A DNA stretch of 64,000 bases from Seiridium cupressi (lineage: Eukaryota; Ascomycota; Sordariomycetes; Amphisphaeriales; Sporocadaceae): contig JARVKI010000066.1 of NCBI GenBank assembly GCA_036674765.1, forward strand, positions 124,001 to 188,000. Reading direction: 5' to 3'. The translations under genes and the position numbers were made by a program. Under the pieces are notes generated by a model. The model was given only the letters and a program-made list of their open reading frames with translations, made no database searches and was not told the DNA's origin. Positions 1-22,660 of this stretch are shown one piece after another (within the stretch, counting starts at the first letter, position 1; each line of letters opens with the position of its first letter).

Positions 1-700
1 GCAGGGTCTCTGGAAGAAGAAAGAGCGGAACCATGCGACCAAGAAGAGTCAATCCAGTATATATGAAGTAGGGTATCCATGGGTTCTTCAACATGAGCAT
101 TGCACTCAGTGGGGTGGCTATAACTTCTGATATGAGACCACAGGCAGTGAGAAGAAAGAACAAGTTCGCCCTTTGGCGTGGCAGAGCAACATCAGCAACA
201 ACCAAGAAGATCATGCCGCTAGCCACAGCATCGCCTCCACCCACAAAGCTAGCCACCGAGGACAACCAGATGAGACGAGGTGGGAAGACATCAGGGCGCC
301 ATAGAACGATTTTAGAGATGAGATCCTACAAGAGAGCACCGATGATTACCATGATGAGGACGGGGCGGCGGCCATAGCGGTCGGCCAAGATGCCGAACGG
401 GATGGCCACGATGAGGCCAGGCAGACGGTTGAAAGTGTTGAGCATTTGATTGACGGTCGCAAGTTCAGCTTGCACAGGGCCAGCCGTGCAATCAGTTGGA
501 CCAGGATTGGAGCTATAGTAGCGGTTGCAGATTCTGCTCTCCAAGATACTCGTCTGGGGCGCGTCCAAGAAGAAAGCCGCGAAGTCGACCAGAATAACCA
601 TGGCGAAGCTCATGGCGATAACCCGGCGCCGGTGCGCGTCGGCATGATCGCTAGGCTCACGGCCTAGTAAAGGTCTCTCTTCCTCCGCAGGACTCGACAT
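1..700 (-). pseudogene. MFS transporter, 3' end outside window, one in-frame stop
   Basis: The reading frame starts at ATG 698-700 (MSSPAEEERPLLG) and runs leftwards off the window. It has an acidic N-tail, a first membrane segment (VIAMSFAMVILVDFAAFFL) and the MFS loop motif GILADRYGRRPV, so it is a 12-helix-type major facilitator. The same frame is broken by TAG at 326-328 and then continues cleanly as membrane protein (GLISEVIATPLSAMLM, then LLPETL at the edge). No GT-AG intron is evident around the stop. The stop sits where Gln is plausible (CAG to TAG), so a single nonsense mutation fits. It is the first gene of the decayed left-hand locus and could have been its exporter. Substrate is unknown. 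Family call is firm; pseudogene status depends on the single stop. Confidence 0.75.
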
Positions 701-770
701 GTTTTCGATCCCCCGTTCTTGCAGTTCTCGAATCGGGCGGATATCGTCGCATGCATTGAGACCTGATTGG

Positions 771-797
771 TTGACTGATTGATTGACTGATTGATTG
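771..797. repeat. Two-copy 12-bp tandem repeat
   Basis: TTGACTGATTGA occurs twice in direct succession, followed by TTG. It lies just upstream of the broken MFS transporter's start, in what would be its leader or promoter. No function is apparent. Confidence 0.7.
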
Positions 798-1523
798 TGG
801 TTACGAGACCGCACTGGCACGCACGTCAGCAATCAGTACATGTAAGTAACATCAGGGGGGCGCCAGAGCCCCGCAGCAGACCGAAAGGCAGCAGGCAACT
901 GAGCAAAGCTCACCATGGCCCCTGGCTCGAGTCAGGCCCAGTTTAATCCGCTCCGCTTGATAAACATCGCTACGATTTCCTGACCTGAATCACTAAACGT
1001 AGTTACAATGTAAGCAATCTTGGGTGCTGTGCTGCTGCAGAATCTGCGCATCAGCCAAACAAGACGGCGCTGTCGCCATCGCTCAATTGATAAAGCTTGA
1101 ATCTATGTACTAAACCATCTCTAACTTCCCCACTGTCCCCAACGTACCGCAATGCTTAGTTCGATCCCCGGCATTCCAATACATTAGGCTACAAGTCTTA
1201 CTTGTGTTCATTGATCACTAAACCGCAGAAGAACCGCATAAATCATGCCAATGGGGAATGTTCCGAGCCTCCCGCACACAACCGTCATACTGTGTATCTC
1301 ACTCACATATGTGTCTCATTAGACTGACCCACGTTCAATGCCACGATTACACATTCGTTGTTGTTGTTGGTATTACTTCACGGTAAGGGTATATTTAACA
1401 GCGACATGAGAAGTCACTCTAGGCTAAGCCACTATCACCCATAGGCCTGAGTTCCACTCGGGTGTCTAATGCTCTACCACGGGTGTTCTCCACCCTAAGT
1501 AAGTCGAGTATCTACGCATAGCG
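798..1523. other. Intergenic, no gene seen
   Basis: About 0.7 kb between the MFS start and the repeat end of the RiPP-like precursor. No frame with a recognisable protein was found on either strand. Confidence 0.6.
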
Positions 1524-1757
1524 TGCCTATGATTATTCCTAGATGGCATCCCTATCAACTTGGCGCGCTTGCTGTGCCCCCGAACATTATCCTCATCGGC
1601 TGTCCTTGCGCTTATTGTACTCCTGGATAGCATCCTCATCCGCCCTCTTGTTGTACTCTTGGATGGCGTCTTCATCGGCACGGTTACCCTATTTTTGGGT
1701 CGCACCTTTATCAACTGGAGCACGTCCACTATACTCCTTCATAGCGTCTTGGTCGGA
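1524..1757 (-). repeat. Six 36-bp protein-coding repeat units
   Basis: Six 36-nt units in tandem, read on the minus strand. Units 2, 3 and 4 are directly adjacent. Gaps elsewhere are 6 nt (units 1-2), 7 nt (4-5) and 5 nt (5-6). Units keep Asp at position 2, and most keep Asp at 4 and a basic residue at the end. Synonymous differences between units 3 and 4 argue for old duplication under protein-level constraint rather than recent slippage. Confidence 0.75.
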
Positions 1758-1892
1758 TGTATATGAGTTTGTTTAACTAGTAAAGCCACTGGCTACAGCG
1801 GGAATATTCATCTTATGGCGGACAGGCTTAGCCAGGGGCGAAGCGAGGGCAGCGGCAATGAGCGGCAAGAGAGCGATGACATTGGAACACAT
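1524..1892 (-). pseudogene. Broken secreted repeat-peptide (dikaritin/KEX2-type RiPP) precursor
   Basis: ATG at 1890-1892 opens a 39-codon frame with a classic signal peptide: MCSN, then a hydrophobic core (VIALLPLIAAALAS), then a basic region. It ends in TAA at 1773-1775. The same frame then carries six 12-residue units at 1757-1722, 1715-1680, 1679-1644, 1643-1608, 1600-1565 and 1559-1524. Units 3 and 4 are identical in protein (ADEDAIQEYNKR) but differ in several codons. Unit 5 lies in a shifted frame, with 7 nt before it and 5 nt after it. Units 2 and 6 carry stops. A signal peptide plus acidic repeats ending in KR, each with a Tyr, is the layout of fungal KEX2-processed precursors such as UstA and PhomA. 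A UstYa-type gene starts about 1.1 kb away. Function is inferred from architecture; the product is unknown and the gene looks dead. Confidence 0.72.
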
Positions 1893-3038: not shown

Positions 3039-3809
3039 ATGGACTCGCCTGATAGTTTGAGCACCTCTGACTCTCCGCTCCTGAATGAGGATGAGAAAGG
3101 GTTGGAGCCTGCCATGATGGGGATATTATCAATATCCGCATAATCAAAAGCAGCATTTCCTGTGGTGGAAGCACTGGAGTTTCACTCTCCTTCTCTTGAT
3201 TGCCTATCGCCTCATATTTCCCACGATACCTGGCCTCTGGACCGCTCAAATTACAGATCCGTTTCAAACATATAGTGAGTAGTCTATATTTAGCCGTAGC
3301 ATGATCGGCACCACTGACCTTTGTTGCATAGCACCTGCAAAGGTCGCTATCAAATTCCACAAAATCAAGTTTGATGCCAGTCTAGGGTTATGAACCATTT
3401 ATACTGTCGAGCGGCGCCATGAGGGAGAAGCAGTATGGAGTTGTCTCTTCAAACGCTATAGCATTCGCTTCACCATATATGAGATGCAGAAAATGAACCG
3501 CACCGCTCTCGATCTCAGCTGAGCGCGTACCACCATCTCCATTACCTGAAAATGCTGAGACAAGTCCTCTGGCACGATTTGTACAACATCAGTATTTCTC
3601 CCCTTCGCGGCCATTCAGACCATTGCATCGACGATATCCGTCAGTCGCTTATGTGTAAACCGGACCTCTCAGCCGTGACCTCCGACTGGGTGCCAGACAA
3701 GCGTAAGCCACGGCCAAACTTCCACCTCGACCCGACGTGGGTCGATTGGGATGCGCTTGATGGATGGGCAGCGAAACGCTCCACTAGCTCCTACTCTTCC
3801 TCAACATAA
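3039..3809 (+). pseudogene. UstYa-family (DUF3328) oxidase-like relic
   Basis: ATG at 3039 begins MDSPDSLSTSDSPLL, an acidic N-tail. After a frameshift near 3105 comes a membrane anchor (LWWKHWSFTLLLLIAYRLI). A GT-AG intron runs from about 3273 to 3331. The next exon has the family's FDASLGL block, then TGA at 3391-3393, then KMNRTALDLS. A second frameshift lies near 3515. The last part holds the two metal-site motifs: the first reads HHLHY where the family has HxxHC (Cys to Tyr, TGC to TAC); the second is intact as HSDHC, followed by IDDIRQSLMC. The C-terminus WDALDGWAAKRS is also family-typical. UstYa proteins catalyse oxidative cyclisation of RiPP cores and related steps. Homology is strong; at least two frameshifts, one stop and a lost Cys make it non-functional. 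Confidence 0.82.
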
Positions 3810-4017: not shown

Positions 4018-5138
4018 CTAAAGATGATATGGAGGCTCGGCCCCCTCGACTGTAGCGTAGATTGCAGTAATAGCCTCTGCAAGCTCGGTGGGGAGGGGTC
4101 CAGCCTCCAACGCGTCAAGCGTCTTATGGAGTTGCTCCATCTTGGACACCGCAAATATCATCCCATCGCCGTATTTCCCATCCAGGATGCTATGGAATGC
4201 CGTCCACCGCAAAGCAGCCGCATGTCCATTGATCCCGTACTTCTCGGCAGCATTTCGGACAGTGGCCACGGAGGCTCGTACAGGGGGCTGACCATAAACA
4301 GTGCTATATAGCTTCCCGACATCGTTCTTGAGGACTATCAGCAAATTATTCACGTTATTGCTCGTGGAACTTACGTCTTTGCTCCATCGTGACGCAGTGT
4401 CGGCATTGCCGGAGAACAGGCCACCCGCTGCAGGGCTGATGCAAACGTCAGTTTCGGAATAATCGTGGATCTGGTAACAACGTACCTATAGGCAAAGAAG
4501 GCAATGTTATGCTTTCGCAGGAGTGGGAAAAGCTCCTTTTCGCCCCTTCTCACAATCGCGTTGTAGTGTCCTTGGTAGACGCCAGGTTTGACAAAACCTT
4601 TTTCCTCGCAGATCTCAATAAACTTCAGCACTTCGGCAGCACTATAGTTAGAGAGTCCAAACGTCCTGAATTTGCCCTGCTTGAAAGCTTCATTCATTGC
4701 CTTTGCTGTATCCTCAAATGGTGTCTGACGATCAGGCACGTGCATAAACATGGTCTCCACGGTAGAAGTCTGAAGCGCATCGAGGGATTGAGTAATACTG
4801 AGGTCAATCTTCGAAGGCTCGTGGTCTCCAGGATGACCACTGTGGACTTTCGTATGGATTGCAAACTTGGAGGCAGCCCCAGCCTGACCTAGACGAAGTT
4901 CCGAGGCGCCAGGGGCATTTCTACTATAATCGCGAGCTGTGTCGACCTGCGTATACCCGCGGCTATGGAAAACACCCAAGAGGGCTTGAACATCTTCTGT
5001 ACTATCGAAGTGTGCAATTCCGGGATCTTTGGCAGTGTCGCCGACCTATTGGCATCAGACTACACTGGCACGTTGTTGGAGCTGGAAGTTGATACACACC
5101 GTGTGGGTACCCAAAATAATCTTCACAGGCGTTGACAT
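4018..5138 (-). CDS. Aldo-keto reductase, aflatoxin-aldehyde-reductase type
   Basis: Four exons (5138-5100, 5045-4486, 4435-4375, 4326-4018) join in frame to 322 aa, near the usual size of AKR7-type enzymes. All three introns are GT-AG and 48-54 nt long. The product is a soluble NADPH-dependent carbonyl reductase. The catalytic tetrad is visible: Asp and Tyr in VDTARDYS, Lys in AIHTKV, His in MFMHVPD. Also typical are FGLSNYSAAEV, the YQGHYNAIVRRGEKEL block and AYSPAAGG across the second intron. The C-terminus ends PPYHL, close to the YWHL-like end of the family. Substrate cannot be read from sequence. It sits between two relics of the left-hand locus and may be a tailoring enzyme that survived, or an unrelated detoxification gene. 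No break was found. Confidence 0.88.
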
Positions 5139-8410: not shown

Positions 8411-9417
8411 TATCGCTACTGGTTGCGTGTTCGGGCTGGTCAAGGGGCTGGCGAAAGGTGGAAAGGAGGTGGAGTAGGTGTGTATGCATCGTGTTAGCAA
8501 TATAGTATGAGAACTATGATAGTATATGTAGAACTCTCGTAGACGCAATGAGACCCGGGAATGTAAATATCACATCCCGAAGATAAGGGAGTCTAGCAAT
8601 TGATAGCATGCGACTCCATCGGCTACGAGCTTATTGTTCGAATACCCATGTTGCCAGTGGACATACCGGCGTCACTACTACATAGCTTTCCCCAGAGATA
8701 AGCTGTGATCAAGTGGGTCAGTATGTACCGGCATGCTGAGAGTACTGCCTGCTGCCAGCTTGGTGGTTGCTAAGTGTGTCAGAACCCCGACCCCGAGAGC
8801 CGTAACCGTCGGGAGATCGGAGGCACTGCTCAGAATTGACATCTTCGGACGTCCATCTTAGGCGTATTGGCTTCCGGTCACGAGTCCGTTTGATACGCCA
8901 TCTGAATGATAAGTAGGGCCTTGAAGATAAGCATCTCGTCGCCTGGATACATATGAATGATCTCTCAACTGGAACGCGCTGAGTTCCTGTGTCGCGAATA
9001 GCACTGGTAGCAGGCCGACCTGACATAATCAACTACACGAGAGAAGCGAAAAAGTCATGAGATGCCGGAAATGTACTTGAGACGACGTGAGGAAGGATTC
9101 TGCGATGTGGTCACTCATGGCTTTGGCTGCGCTGGGCAGCCTGGCAGATAATGATGCCTCGACCAACGGCGACAATATTGGTGGCTATTCAAAAGTGACA
9201 ACCTCCCAAGGGACGTCACGAATGGCGTTAGGACAGTTCCCACCAACGACACAAGGTAAGGGACTGGAGCGATTGAGACATTCGAATGAGCGTCGCGCCT
9301 GCAATGGAAGGGCGTGTCGGAACCCGCACGGTCACGTGATTCGCCCCGGCATCAATCGCATTTCTCAATTACATCCACAAAATTTGTTCCCTTCCCTTCC
9401 TTAAGACAATTTTCACC
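8411..9417. other. Divergent intergenic region
   Basis: About 1 kb separates the starts of the sugar transporter (minus) and the GH18 gene (plus), so both promoters lie here. Short overlapping open frames on both strands show no recognisable domain. Confidence 0.6.
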
Positions 9418-10698
9418 ATGGAGGCAACCCGAAGAGCGCTGCAGCTCTTGTTATCACTTCTACTGGTCACTGCAGCGGTGCACTGTAGTAGTGATGGACT
9501 GGAGCCGGATGAGCAAGTCCCACTGCAAGCACCCGCCAATGCAAAGCGCCATCCGGAGTTGCCCGTGCTGGGCTACGTAACGCCATGGAACCCGCGAGGC
9601 AAGCAACTGGTCGAAGAGTACCGAAACAGGTTCGACATAGTAAGCCCGGTATGGTATACTGTTCTTCCCAGTAAGGATAGCGCCGCAGTATACGAAGTAA
9701 GCGGCGGCCCTCCGGAGGACGAGGATAAGCAGTGGTACCGGCGGTTGCAGGAACCTTCAGTGGCGGATTCGAAATCGCTCCGGATAACACCGCGCTTCCT
9801 CCTAGACGGTTGGAACCAAGACGATTATATGCAGCTCGTCTCCAACGAAACACGATGGCGGCGGCTTTCCGGGGTCATCATGCAAGTGGTCGAGGATATG
9901 TCGTTCGACGGTGTAGTTTTCGAATCCGCAGCGTCGCATGCCCTTCGTGGTCCCATTGCCACACTCTCGGATGCTCTCTGGGAGGAAGACAAGACGCTGG
10001 TCCTAGTGGTGCCGCCAATACGTTTGAGTAGTGACCCGCCTGATGCCGCCACAAGGGAACGGTCCGTGTCGCACCTTACTGACATAGTCGACTATTTCAG
10101 TATGATGACGTACGACATGTCAGGGCCGGGAGGACATGAGCACACACGGTCATTCTCGCCAGATAGTCAGCTCTTCCCCGCGCAGCAGCAACACAAGGTT
10201 CGTTCGCCAGGACCCAACACAGCTGCACACTGGATCCTGCACAACATGATGGCATTTTGGGAAGCTGAGTACGACTATGACGACTTGGTTGGTGATATGC
10301 TGCCAAAGGTCCTCTTCAACAAGAAAGAATCGGGCTACTTCCTGATGGGCATGCCCTTATATGGATACAAGTATCCCGTGTTGCCCGTGGACGAAGACTC
10401 TGGTACCATCATTCGTGTGGGGGAGAATGTCGAGCACGAATTCGTTATCTTGAGAGGTCCCGGCGAGCCAGTCATTATGTCCCAGATCCAGGAGCTGATC
10501 ACAAAACACGAACCAAAATTGCAAAAGGTGGAATATGACGATGTGCCAGAGTACTACTTTGATTATCATCAGGAAGATGGTCGTTGGAGGGTGTTCATGC
10601 CAACTGCGGAAAGCATGTCAGCCACTCTGGACACCCTACCCGGAGTTGCGTTGTGGGAAATAGGGCAAAGTTCGACGGAACTATTGGAGACTCTCTGA
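9418..10698 (+). CDS. CHID1-like GH18-fold secreted protein
   Basis: Single-exon frame of 426 aa. The N-terminus is a signal peptide (MEATRRALQLLLSLLLVTAAVHC). The rest matches the chitinase-domain-containing protein 1 (CHID1, SI-CLP) branch of GH18: VLGYVTPWNPRGKQL near residue 50, IVSPVWYTVLP, a central barrel strand SFDGVVFES where canonical chitinases have DxxDxDxE, YFSMMTYDMSGPGG, GYFLMGMPLYGYKYP, and a closing GVALWEIGQ strand. The glutamate of the active strand is kept but the aspartates before it are not all in place, so chitin hydrolysis is doubtful and a sugar-binding role is possible. It probably resides in the secretory pathway or outside the cell. Starts just after a Kozak-like ACC context. 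Confidence 0.9.
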   Translation: MEATRRALQLLLSLLLVTAAVHCSSDGLEPDEQVPLQAPANAKRHPELPVLGYVTPWNPRGKQLVEEYRNRFDIVSPVWYTVLPSKDSAAVYEVSGGPPEDEDKQWYRRLQEPSVADSKSLRITPRFLLDGWNQDDYMQLVSNETRWRRLSGVIMQVVEDMSFDGVVFESAASHALRGPIATLSDALWEEDKTLVLVVPPIRLSSDPPDAATRERSVSHLTDIVDYFSMMTYDMSGPGGHEHTRSFSPDSQLFPAQQQHKVRSPGPNTAAHWILHNMMAFWEAEYDYDDLVGDMLPKVLFNKKESGYFLMGMPLYGYKYPVLPVDEDSGTIIRVGENVEHEFVILRGPGEPVIMSQIQELITKHEPKLQKVEYDDVPEYYFDYHQEDGRWRVFMPTAESMSATLDTLPGVALWEIGQSSTELLETL

Positions 10699-22032: not shown

Positions 22033-22660
22033 TCATTGGTGGATTCCATACCCATCCTCAGCGCCCAACAAATTCTTGTTATTCATGGCAGAGAGCGTGA
22101 TATCCGCATAACACATCAACGTGTGACGCATGTATTCTACGCAGTAGCCGATATGGTGTTCAAATTTGTGGCCTGCGAAGCCGGAAAGTCGCTGACGAAT
22201 GATGTACTATACAAGGAACCAGCATTTGCTATTGAAGCCGATCATACACCAAGACCGAATGCTGATGACATGAAGTCTTACCAGACAGGGTAAACTGTGG
22301 AAGGCGTCAACCTGATATTGTACCTTGCCAGGAAATCGCGGGGCCGCTCCCCCACGCGGAAGGTTGTGCTTGGCTGCCCACTCCTCAGTAACGGCGACAA
22401 TTCCATGATCTGAGATATACAAGATATCTAGTCGATGTGATGAAGGTTCCGCAACTCACGCTGAATCATCTCATCCCAAGATCCGGTGTGGTGAGAGTTA
22501 ACTCCATCATCACATGCATTCGTGAAGTCCCACTCCATGTCCATCGGAACAAGCAAGTTGTCTCTATAGCGGACAGCGCTCTGACTTTCTCAACGAGGCT
22601 GCCAACTCGCATACGACCATGCCTTACAATCGTCAAAATAGCTACCACGACCGCTCTACC
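22033..22660 (-). pseudogene. Second UstYa-family (DUF3328) relic, both metal motifs altered
   Basis: Three exon-like pieces join with plausible GT-AG introns: about 22660-22460, 22409-22282 and 22206-22033. The first has LLVPMDMEWDFTNACDDG but carries TGA at 22590-22592. The second has HGIVAVTEEWAAKHNLP and VDAFHSLPCL, so the first motif is HSLPC instead of HxxHC. The third has HIGYCVEYMRHTLMCYADI, where the second motif is HIGYC (His to Tyr). The frame stops at GYGIHQ then TGA (22033-22035), where relatives have HQC, and reads on as YDSVVN. No clear membrane anchor remains. It is not a close copy of the relic at 3039-3809. No precursor-like repeat gene was found beside it. Homology is good; catalysis looks impossible as it stands. 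Confidence 0.72.

What the first reader, a model, noticed from the sequence alone, without database searches (positions are those of the whole stretch)
1524..1892. A KR-ended repeat precursor: probable dikaritin-type RiPP gene, now broken
Seen: on the minus strand a signal peptide is followed in the same frame by six 12-residue units, two identical (ADEDAIQEYNKR). Known: UstA/PhomA-like precursors have a signal peptide and KEX2-cut repeats with a Tyr-containing core. Inferred: an uncatalogued precursor relic. The acidic spacer ADED and the core segment around IQEYN do not match a core I can name. Stops and frame changes show it no longer makes a full precursor here.
Basis: partly seen in the sequence, partly recalled or inferred. 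Interest (0 to 1): 0.92.

Follow-up and report, generated by a model that had tools for sequence, protein, structure and literature searches.

The report
Dead fungal cyclic-peptide precursor gene
A fungus close to the cypress canker genus Seiridium carries the broken remains of a gene for a secreted, repeat-built peptide next to the broken remains of the kind of enzyme gene that turns such peptides into rings, and one related species still has an open copy of the peptide gene.

Summary
On the minus strand (1892-1524) a signal-peptide-like start is followed by six copies of a 12-residue unit ending in a Kex2-type basic pair; four copies are decayed. The other two are identical in protein (ADEDAIQEYNKR) but differ at 8 of 36 bases, all silent, so the unit was once under protein-level selection. 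1.1 kb away, divergently transcribed, lies a DUF3328/UstYa (PF11807) gene at 3039-3809. It is broken too (stop, frame changes, a lost segment, first HxxHC motif ruined), although 10 of 10 relatives found keep both motifs. The transporter frame on the other side also carries a stop. Seiridium cardinale has an open 111-residue relative of the precursor with five units; S. unicorne has a 64-residue model whose two parts match this window exactly, so the window is probably S. unicorne or a close sister. Two searches found no precursor relative outside Seiridium. Best reading: a decayed asperipin-like dikaritin-type cluster (precursor, one UstYa, perhaps a transporter; no tyrosinase match on the contig) with a core between ED and KR (about AIQEYN) that I could not match to a named one. 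Ring formation and product are inferred. A new member of a known kind, dead here.

The parts
1524..1892 (-). degenerate Kex2-processed repeat protein (dikaritin-type precursor) pseudogene, whole extent
   Evidence: frame reading and repeats; S. cardinale P0001 aligns to it in two pieces, 67% and 52% identity, with stops
1794..1892 (-). start codon, signal-peptide-like start and pro-segment MCSNVIALLPLIAAALASPLAKPVRHKMNIPAV; identical to the first 33 residues of S. unicorne P0002
1689..1793 (-). 105 nt holding unit 1, most of unit 2 and two in-frame stops; absent from the S. unicorne protein model; borders read GC...AG
1722..1757 (-). unit 1, SDQDAMKEYSGR
1680..1715 (-). unit 2, decayed, contains a stop
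1644..1679 (-). unit 3, ADEDAIQEYNKR
1608..1643 (-). unit 4, ADEDAIQEYNKR, 8 silent differences from unit 3
1565..1600 (-). unit 5, ADEDNVRGHSKR, in another frame
1524..1559 (-). unit 6, decayed, three stops
3039..3809 (+). UstYa/DUF3328 (PF11807) pseudogene: three homologous pieces in two frames, an in-frame stop, a conserved segment missing, first HxxHC motif reads HHLHY, second (HSDHC) present
   Evidence: PF11807 match 3504-3779; 75% identity of the last piece to N. clavispora P0003 and two earlier pieces; Pfam 58.6 bits for 3552-3806
2..832 (-). MFS-type transporter frame, cut by the window's start, with an in-frame TAG at 326-328; possible cluster exporter
   Evidence: weak Pfam matches of its two parts, MFS_1 23.5 bits (cut-off 33.4) and Sugar_tr 16.5 bits (cut-off 22.3); frame read

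Best explanation
This is the relic of a dikaritin-type (ustiloxin/asperipin-like) RiPP cluster. When intact, the precursor would have entered the secretory pathway by its signal peptide, Kex2 in the Golgi would have cut after each basic pair into about 12-residue peptides, and the neighbouring membrane-bound, copper-dependent UstYa enzyme would have cross-linked the single Tyr of the core between the ED and KR motifs (about AIQEYN). Exopeptidases would then have trimmed the acidic ADED stretch, and the adjacent MFS-type transporter may have exported the product. Shown here: the repeat anatomy, the silent-only divergence of two units, the adjacent UstYa gene, the lesions in both genes, and an open precursor relative in Seiridium cardinale. 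Inferred: Kex2 cutting, cross-linking at Tyr, trimming, export, and any activity.
For: Signal-peptide-like start plus six units; 8 of 8 base differences between the two perfect units are silent. UstYa gene divergent at 1.1 kb: with 45 PF11807 matches in 45.36 Mb, the chance that one falls within 2 kb of a given point is at most about 0.4% (my arithmetic). S. cardinale P0001, 111 aa, open, five units, Tyr in 5 of 5, dibasic end in 4 of 5. Ten of ten UstYa relatives have both HxxHC motifs. In PMC7329392 (abstract and passages seen) 22% of 7878 such proteins had a DUF3328 gene among the nearest genes, with the peak at the very next position, and the asperipin-2a cluster has just one; PMC6514808 (passages) describes UstA cores as flanked by ED and KR, as here, and the asperipin cluster as precursor, one UstY homologue, transporter and reductase.
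Against: No tyrosinase match on this contig. No precursor relative outside Seiridium (the same 2 proteins, from 4 and 473 candidates), although UstYa relatives occur in several other genera. No Seiridium protein among the 10 UstYa relatives (33 candidates), so the S. cardinale precursor may lack its partner. The core has Tyr near its C-terminal end, not first as in YxIx. No expression or product data.
Confidence: 0.82

Rival explanations
1. A Kex2-processed repeat protein that gave linear, unmodified secreted peptides (pheromone- or signal-like), with the UstYa gene a neighbour by chance.
For: 78% of the 7878 surveyed Kex2-processed repeat proteins have no DUF3328 gene among their nearest genes (PMC7329392, abstract and passages); no UstYa relative of this group was found among Seiridium proteins although S. 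cardinale keeps the precursor open; the gene neighbourhoods of the UstYa relatives could not be read, so no partnership elsewhere is shown.
Against: The UstYa gene is divergent at 1.1 kb and is decayed like the precursor; the units carry Tyr; pheromone-type repeat proteins, with three exceptions, have no DUF3328 neighbour (PMC7329392).
Confidence: 0.1
2. The gene still works in a shortened form: a GC-AG intron of 105 nt removes both upstream stops, leaving a 64-residue precursor with two perfect units.
For: S. unicorne P0002 is exactly this window's two pieces, in the same frame, either side of that 105-nt segment; the two units it would keep are the only perfect ones.
Against: The segment consists largely of decayed repeat units, the donor GCCAGT is a poor GC-type site (recalled consensus), gene predictors can skip stops this way (recalled), and the UstYa partner is broken.
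Confidence: 0.07
3. A chance repeat or part of an unrelated wall protein.
For: No Pfam family above cut-off fits P0001 (only a 16.1-bit LysM_RLK match, cut-off 27), so the family is not placed by that route.
Against: Open relative in S. cardinale, silent-only divergence, 0 similar tandem units in 200 shuffles, short protein ending with the repeats.
Confidence: 0.01

Closest known systems
Asperipin-2a cluster (aprA, aprY, aprT, aprR; Aspergillus flavus)
   Same: Kex2-type repeat precursor with a signal peptide, a single UstYa homologue and a transporter; four genes, no tyrosinase listed (PMC6514808, passages)
   Different: Core FYYTGY against about AIQEYN; gene order, reductase and product not established here; this cluster is broken
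Ustiloxin and phomopsin precursors UstA/PhomA
   Same: Signal peptide, repeats ending in KR, DUF3328 gene nearby, Tyr in the core; for UstA also a core flanked by ED and KR
   Different: Cores YAIG/YVIG/YVIP have Tyr first and Ile two residues later; here Tyr is the last but one residue before KR, with I, V, M or T three residues before it; no tyrosinase match on the contig
Seiridium cardinale AB5N19_01632 (P0001) and S. unicorne SUNI508_10771 (P0002)
   Same: Same signal-peptide region and unit
   Different: P0001 is open with five units; P0002 is a model that lacks the broken 105 nt
DUF3328 copper enzymes such as CctR (cyclochlorotine hydroxylase; PMC12435403, abstract and passages)
   Same: Same family; HxxHC(x)nHxxHC motif in the relatives of this gene
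   Different: CctR acts on a non-ribosomal peptide; the window copy has lost the first motif's Cys and its frame

Membership tests
Kex2-processed repeat proteins (KEPs) | N-terminal signal peptide | tested here: inconclusive
   Hydrophobic start ending in ALA-SP, kept in S. cardinale; judged by eye, no predictor run
[quoted passage not shown]
   Two perfect KR units in the window and four of five dibasic ends in S. cardinale; the other four window units are decayed, one of them still ending in KR
Dikaritins (DUF3328 as class-defining enzyme) | DUF3328/UstYa gene close to the precursor gene | tested here: met
   PF11807 match at window 3504-3779, divergent neighbour; pseudogene
Dikaritins (DUF3328 as class-defining enzyme) | two HxxHC motifs in the UstYa protein | tested here: not met
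   Window copy reads HHLHY and HSDHC; 10 of 10 relatives have both, so I take it as lost by decay in this copy
Dikaritins (older five-gene definition) | tyrosinase in the cluster | tested here: not met
   No PF00264 match on contig C66 among 51 genome matches (counts are lower bounds); the asperipin cluster lists none either (PMC6514808, passages)
Dikaritins (older five-gene definition) | methyltransferase and peptidase in the cluster | not tested
   Only 19 selected stop-free frames of the window, besides one UstYa frame, were scanned with Pfam; the contig before the window could not be read
Dikaritins | Tyr-containing core cross-linked by ether bond | not testable with these tools
   Tyr in both perfect window units and in 5 of 5 S. 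cardinale units; a cross-link needs mass spectrometry or NMR
Ustiloxin/phomopsin subtype | core YxIx | tested here: not met
   Core region is AIQEYN and variants

The most novel reading that the evidence does not exclude
A genus-specific dikaritin-type precursor with a core in which Tyr stands near the C-terminal end (A-I-Q-E-Y-N), whose partner enzyme has decayed in the genus while S. cardinale keeps the precursor open, now perhaps releasing linear secreted peptides: a RiPP precursor caught returning to a linear peptide after losing its cyclase.
Probability: 0.12. Interest if true: 0.55.

Novelty: new member of a known kind. Interest (0 to 1): 0.42.

Why it matters
[quoted passage not shown] Apparently intact UstYa relatives occur in Neopestalotiopsis, Nemania, Lasiosphaeris and Ophiocordyceps, so the precursors that may lie next to those genes are worth looking for. 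S. cardinale is a cypress canker fungus (abstract of PMC8217882 in the listing), and its open gene makes a product search possible there.

Tried and rejected
Searches for further precursor relatives: a profile of the two Seiridium proteins and the window frame gave the same two proteins only (473 candidates). Papers, listings only unless said: unit strings (5 papers hold one of them; by title none is on fungal peptides; none opened); Seiridium with RiPP (4 papers, none on the subject by title); three Seiridium species with 'genome' (0); UstYa, Kex2 and RiPP (6); dikaritin terms (18, 17 listed); HxxHC with DUF3328 (2); decayed RiPP clusters (9 papers, none on that by title); Ophiocordyceps, UstYa, RiPP (47 papers, 10 listed); Sporocadaceae or Pestalotiopsis with RiPP and gene-cluster terms (51 papers, 10 listed). 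PMC6339444 was seen in passages only. The survey of PMC7329392 includes Pestalotiopsis and Ophiocordyceps repeat proteins, but its supplementary tables could not be read, so this unit may already be in its list. A repeat scan that required a basic pair before the first unit missed the window's own locus (an earlier one found L007 only) and was replaced. Repeat-induced point mutation as the cause of decay: the two indices for the repeat gene (0.97, 1.23) and the UstYa gene (0.59, 1.49) against the whole window (0.75, 1.25) do not point one way; not pursued. No solved structure matches P0003 by sequence at E up to 1. Pheromone and wall-protein readings are weighed under rivals.

Not done: the contig before the window, wider flanks of the stronger UstYa loci, and the gene neighbours of the UstYa relatives in other species could not be read.

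Full report
What is there. The window is contig C66, bases 124001-188000, of a 45.36 Mb genome in 228 contigs. On the minus strand a frame opens at 1892 with a signal-peptide-like start and runs into repeated 12-residue units. Coordinates of the six units are given under parts. Two are perfect and identical in protein, ADEDAIQEYNKR. Stops lie in the frame both before and after the perfect pair.

More than chance. The perfect pair differs at 8 of 36 bases and every difference is silent; 1 of 2,000,000 random placements of 8 substitutions left the peptide unchanged (the pair was chosen because it is identical). A scan of the window and the 51 loci for tandem units with KR or RR ends found this locus (also as L001 and L002) and two others, L003 and L007, and nothing in 200 codon-block shuffles of the window. 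Searches of the genome found the unit at this locus only.

Relatives. A search with the frame, X at its stops, gave two proteins (4 candidates): Seiridium cardinale AB5N19_01632 (P0001, 111 aa) and S. unicorne SUNI508_10771 (P0002, 64 aa), shown. P0001 is open: a like start, then units ending TQEYGNR, ADEDVIQEYNKR, ADEDPIREYGRR, ADEDAMQEYSKR and ADEDAVQEYNKR. Whether its gene has introns could not be seen. The two parts of P0002 (33 and 31 residues) match the window exactly and in one frame, either side of a 105-nt segment with both upstream stops and GC...AG borders. So the window is probably S. unicorne or a very close sister, and the S. unicorne model lacks the broken part. A profile search over 473 candidates found nothing further. 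Pfam and NCBIfam have no fitting family for P0001.

The neighbour. A search of the genome with PF11807 gave 45 matches, one at window 3504-3779 on the plus strand; Pfam confirms it (58.6 bits, cut-off 25). It starts at 3039, divergent from the precursor with 1.1 kb between the two start codons. A search with its C-terminal part gave 10 relatives from 33 candidates: Neopestalotiopsis clavispora (74%), Ophiocordyceps unilateralis, O. polyrhachis-furcata, O. australis, Nemania (two), Lasiosphaeris, Lasiodiplodia, Diaporthe and one from an unnamed source (sequences of nine). No Seiridium protein was among them. Aligned to P0003, the window gene falls into three pieces in two frames with an in-frame stop outside the presumed intron, lacks a conserved segment just before the first motif, and reads HHLHY where 10 of 10 relatives read HHLHC; the second motif is present. 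It is the only close copy that the search of the genome showed: matches elsewhere have 28-46% identity. The HxxHC motifs are reported to form the copper centre of the family (PMC12435403, abstract and passages). The MFS-type transporter frame on the other side carries a TAG at 326-328 (Pfam matches below cut-off); I infer that it too is broken, but only part of it lies in the window.

How it would have worked. By analogy with ustiloxin, phomopsin and asperipin (PMC7329392, PMC6514808: passages), the precursor is secreted, cut by Kex2, cross-linked at Tyr by UstYa, trimmed and exported. The UstA core is described as flanked by ED and KR; the same two marks here enclose A-I-Q-E-Y-N. Tyr and the Glu before it occur in all five S. 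cardinale units and in three of the six window units; the residue three before Tyr varies (I, V, M, T), so I do not name the cross-link partner. None of these steps was tested.

Filing. As a Kex2-processed repeat protein with a DUF3328 neighbour it fits the dikaritin class as redefined with DUF3328 as class-defining enzyme (PMC12048977, passages). It does not fit the YxIx subtype, and no tyrosinase match lies on this contig. In make-up it is closest to the asperipin cluster. I know of no named core like AIQEYN; the string search showed none on fungal peptides by title in the held library, which lacks most papers of subscription journals, and the supplementary lists of PMC7329392 could not be read.

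Limits. The signal peptide was judged by eye. No expression, splicing or product data were available.

Verdict. It is of moderate interest because both genes are broken here and the class is well known.

Noticed in passing
L003 3465-3524 (C111, about 1.4 kb from the genome's best UstYa match): Two identical units DEAIPFYPKR in tandem, sharing the spacing A-I-x-x-Y-x-K-R with the window's unit: possibly a second precursor of the same core type in this genome.
   Followed up: partly
L007 3478-3657 (C19, about 1.3 kb from a UstYa match): A repeat frame with a signal-peptide-like start and three 20-residue units of the type DYPDLEKDNIIIKSSDTYKR, a different core type beside another UstYa match.
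   Followed up: partly
window 22075-22446 (-): A second, weaker UstYa match with a TAG inside (34.6 bits); the scan found no tandem basic-pair units elsewhere in the window than at the finding.
   Followed up: partly
window 4018-5045 (-): Aldo/keto reductase matches in two stop-free stretches right behind the UstYa relic; could be a tailoring enzyme of the cluster or an unrelated neighbour.
   Followed up: no
window 9340-10695 (+): 452-residue frame with a weak match to glycosyl hydrolase family 18 (29.0 bits, just under the cut-off of 29.6).
   Followed up: no
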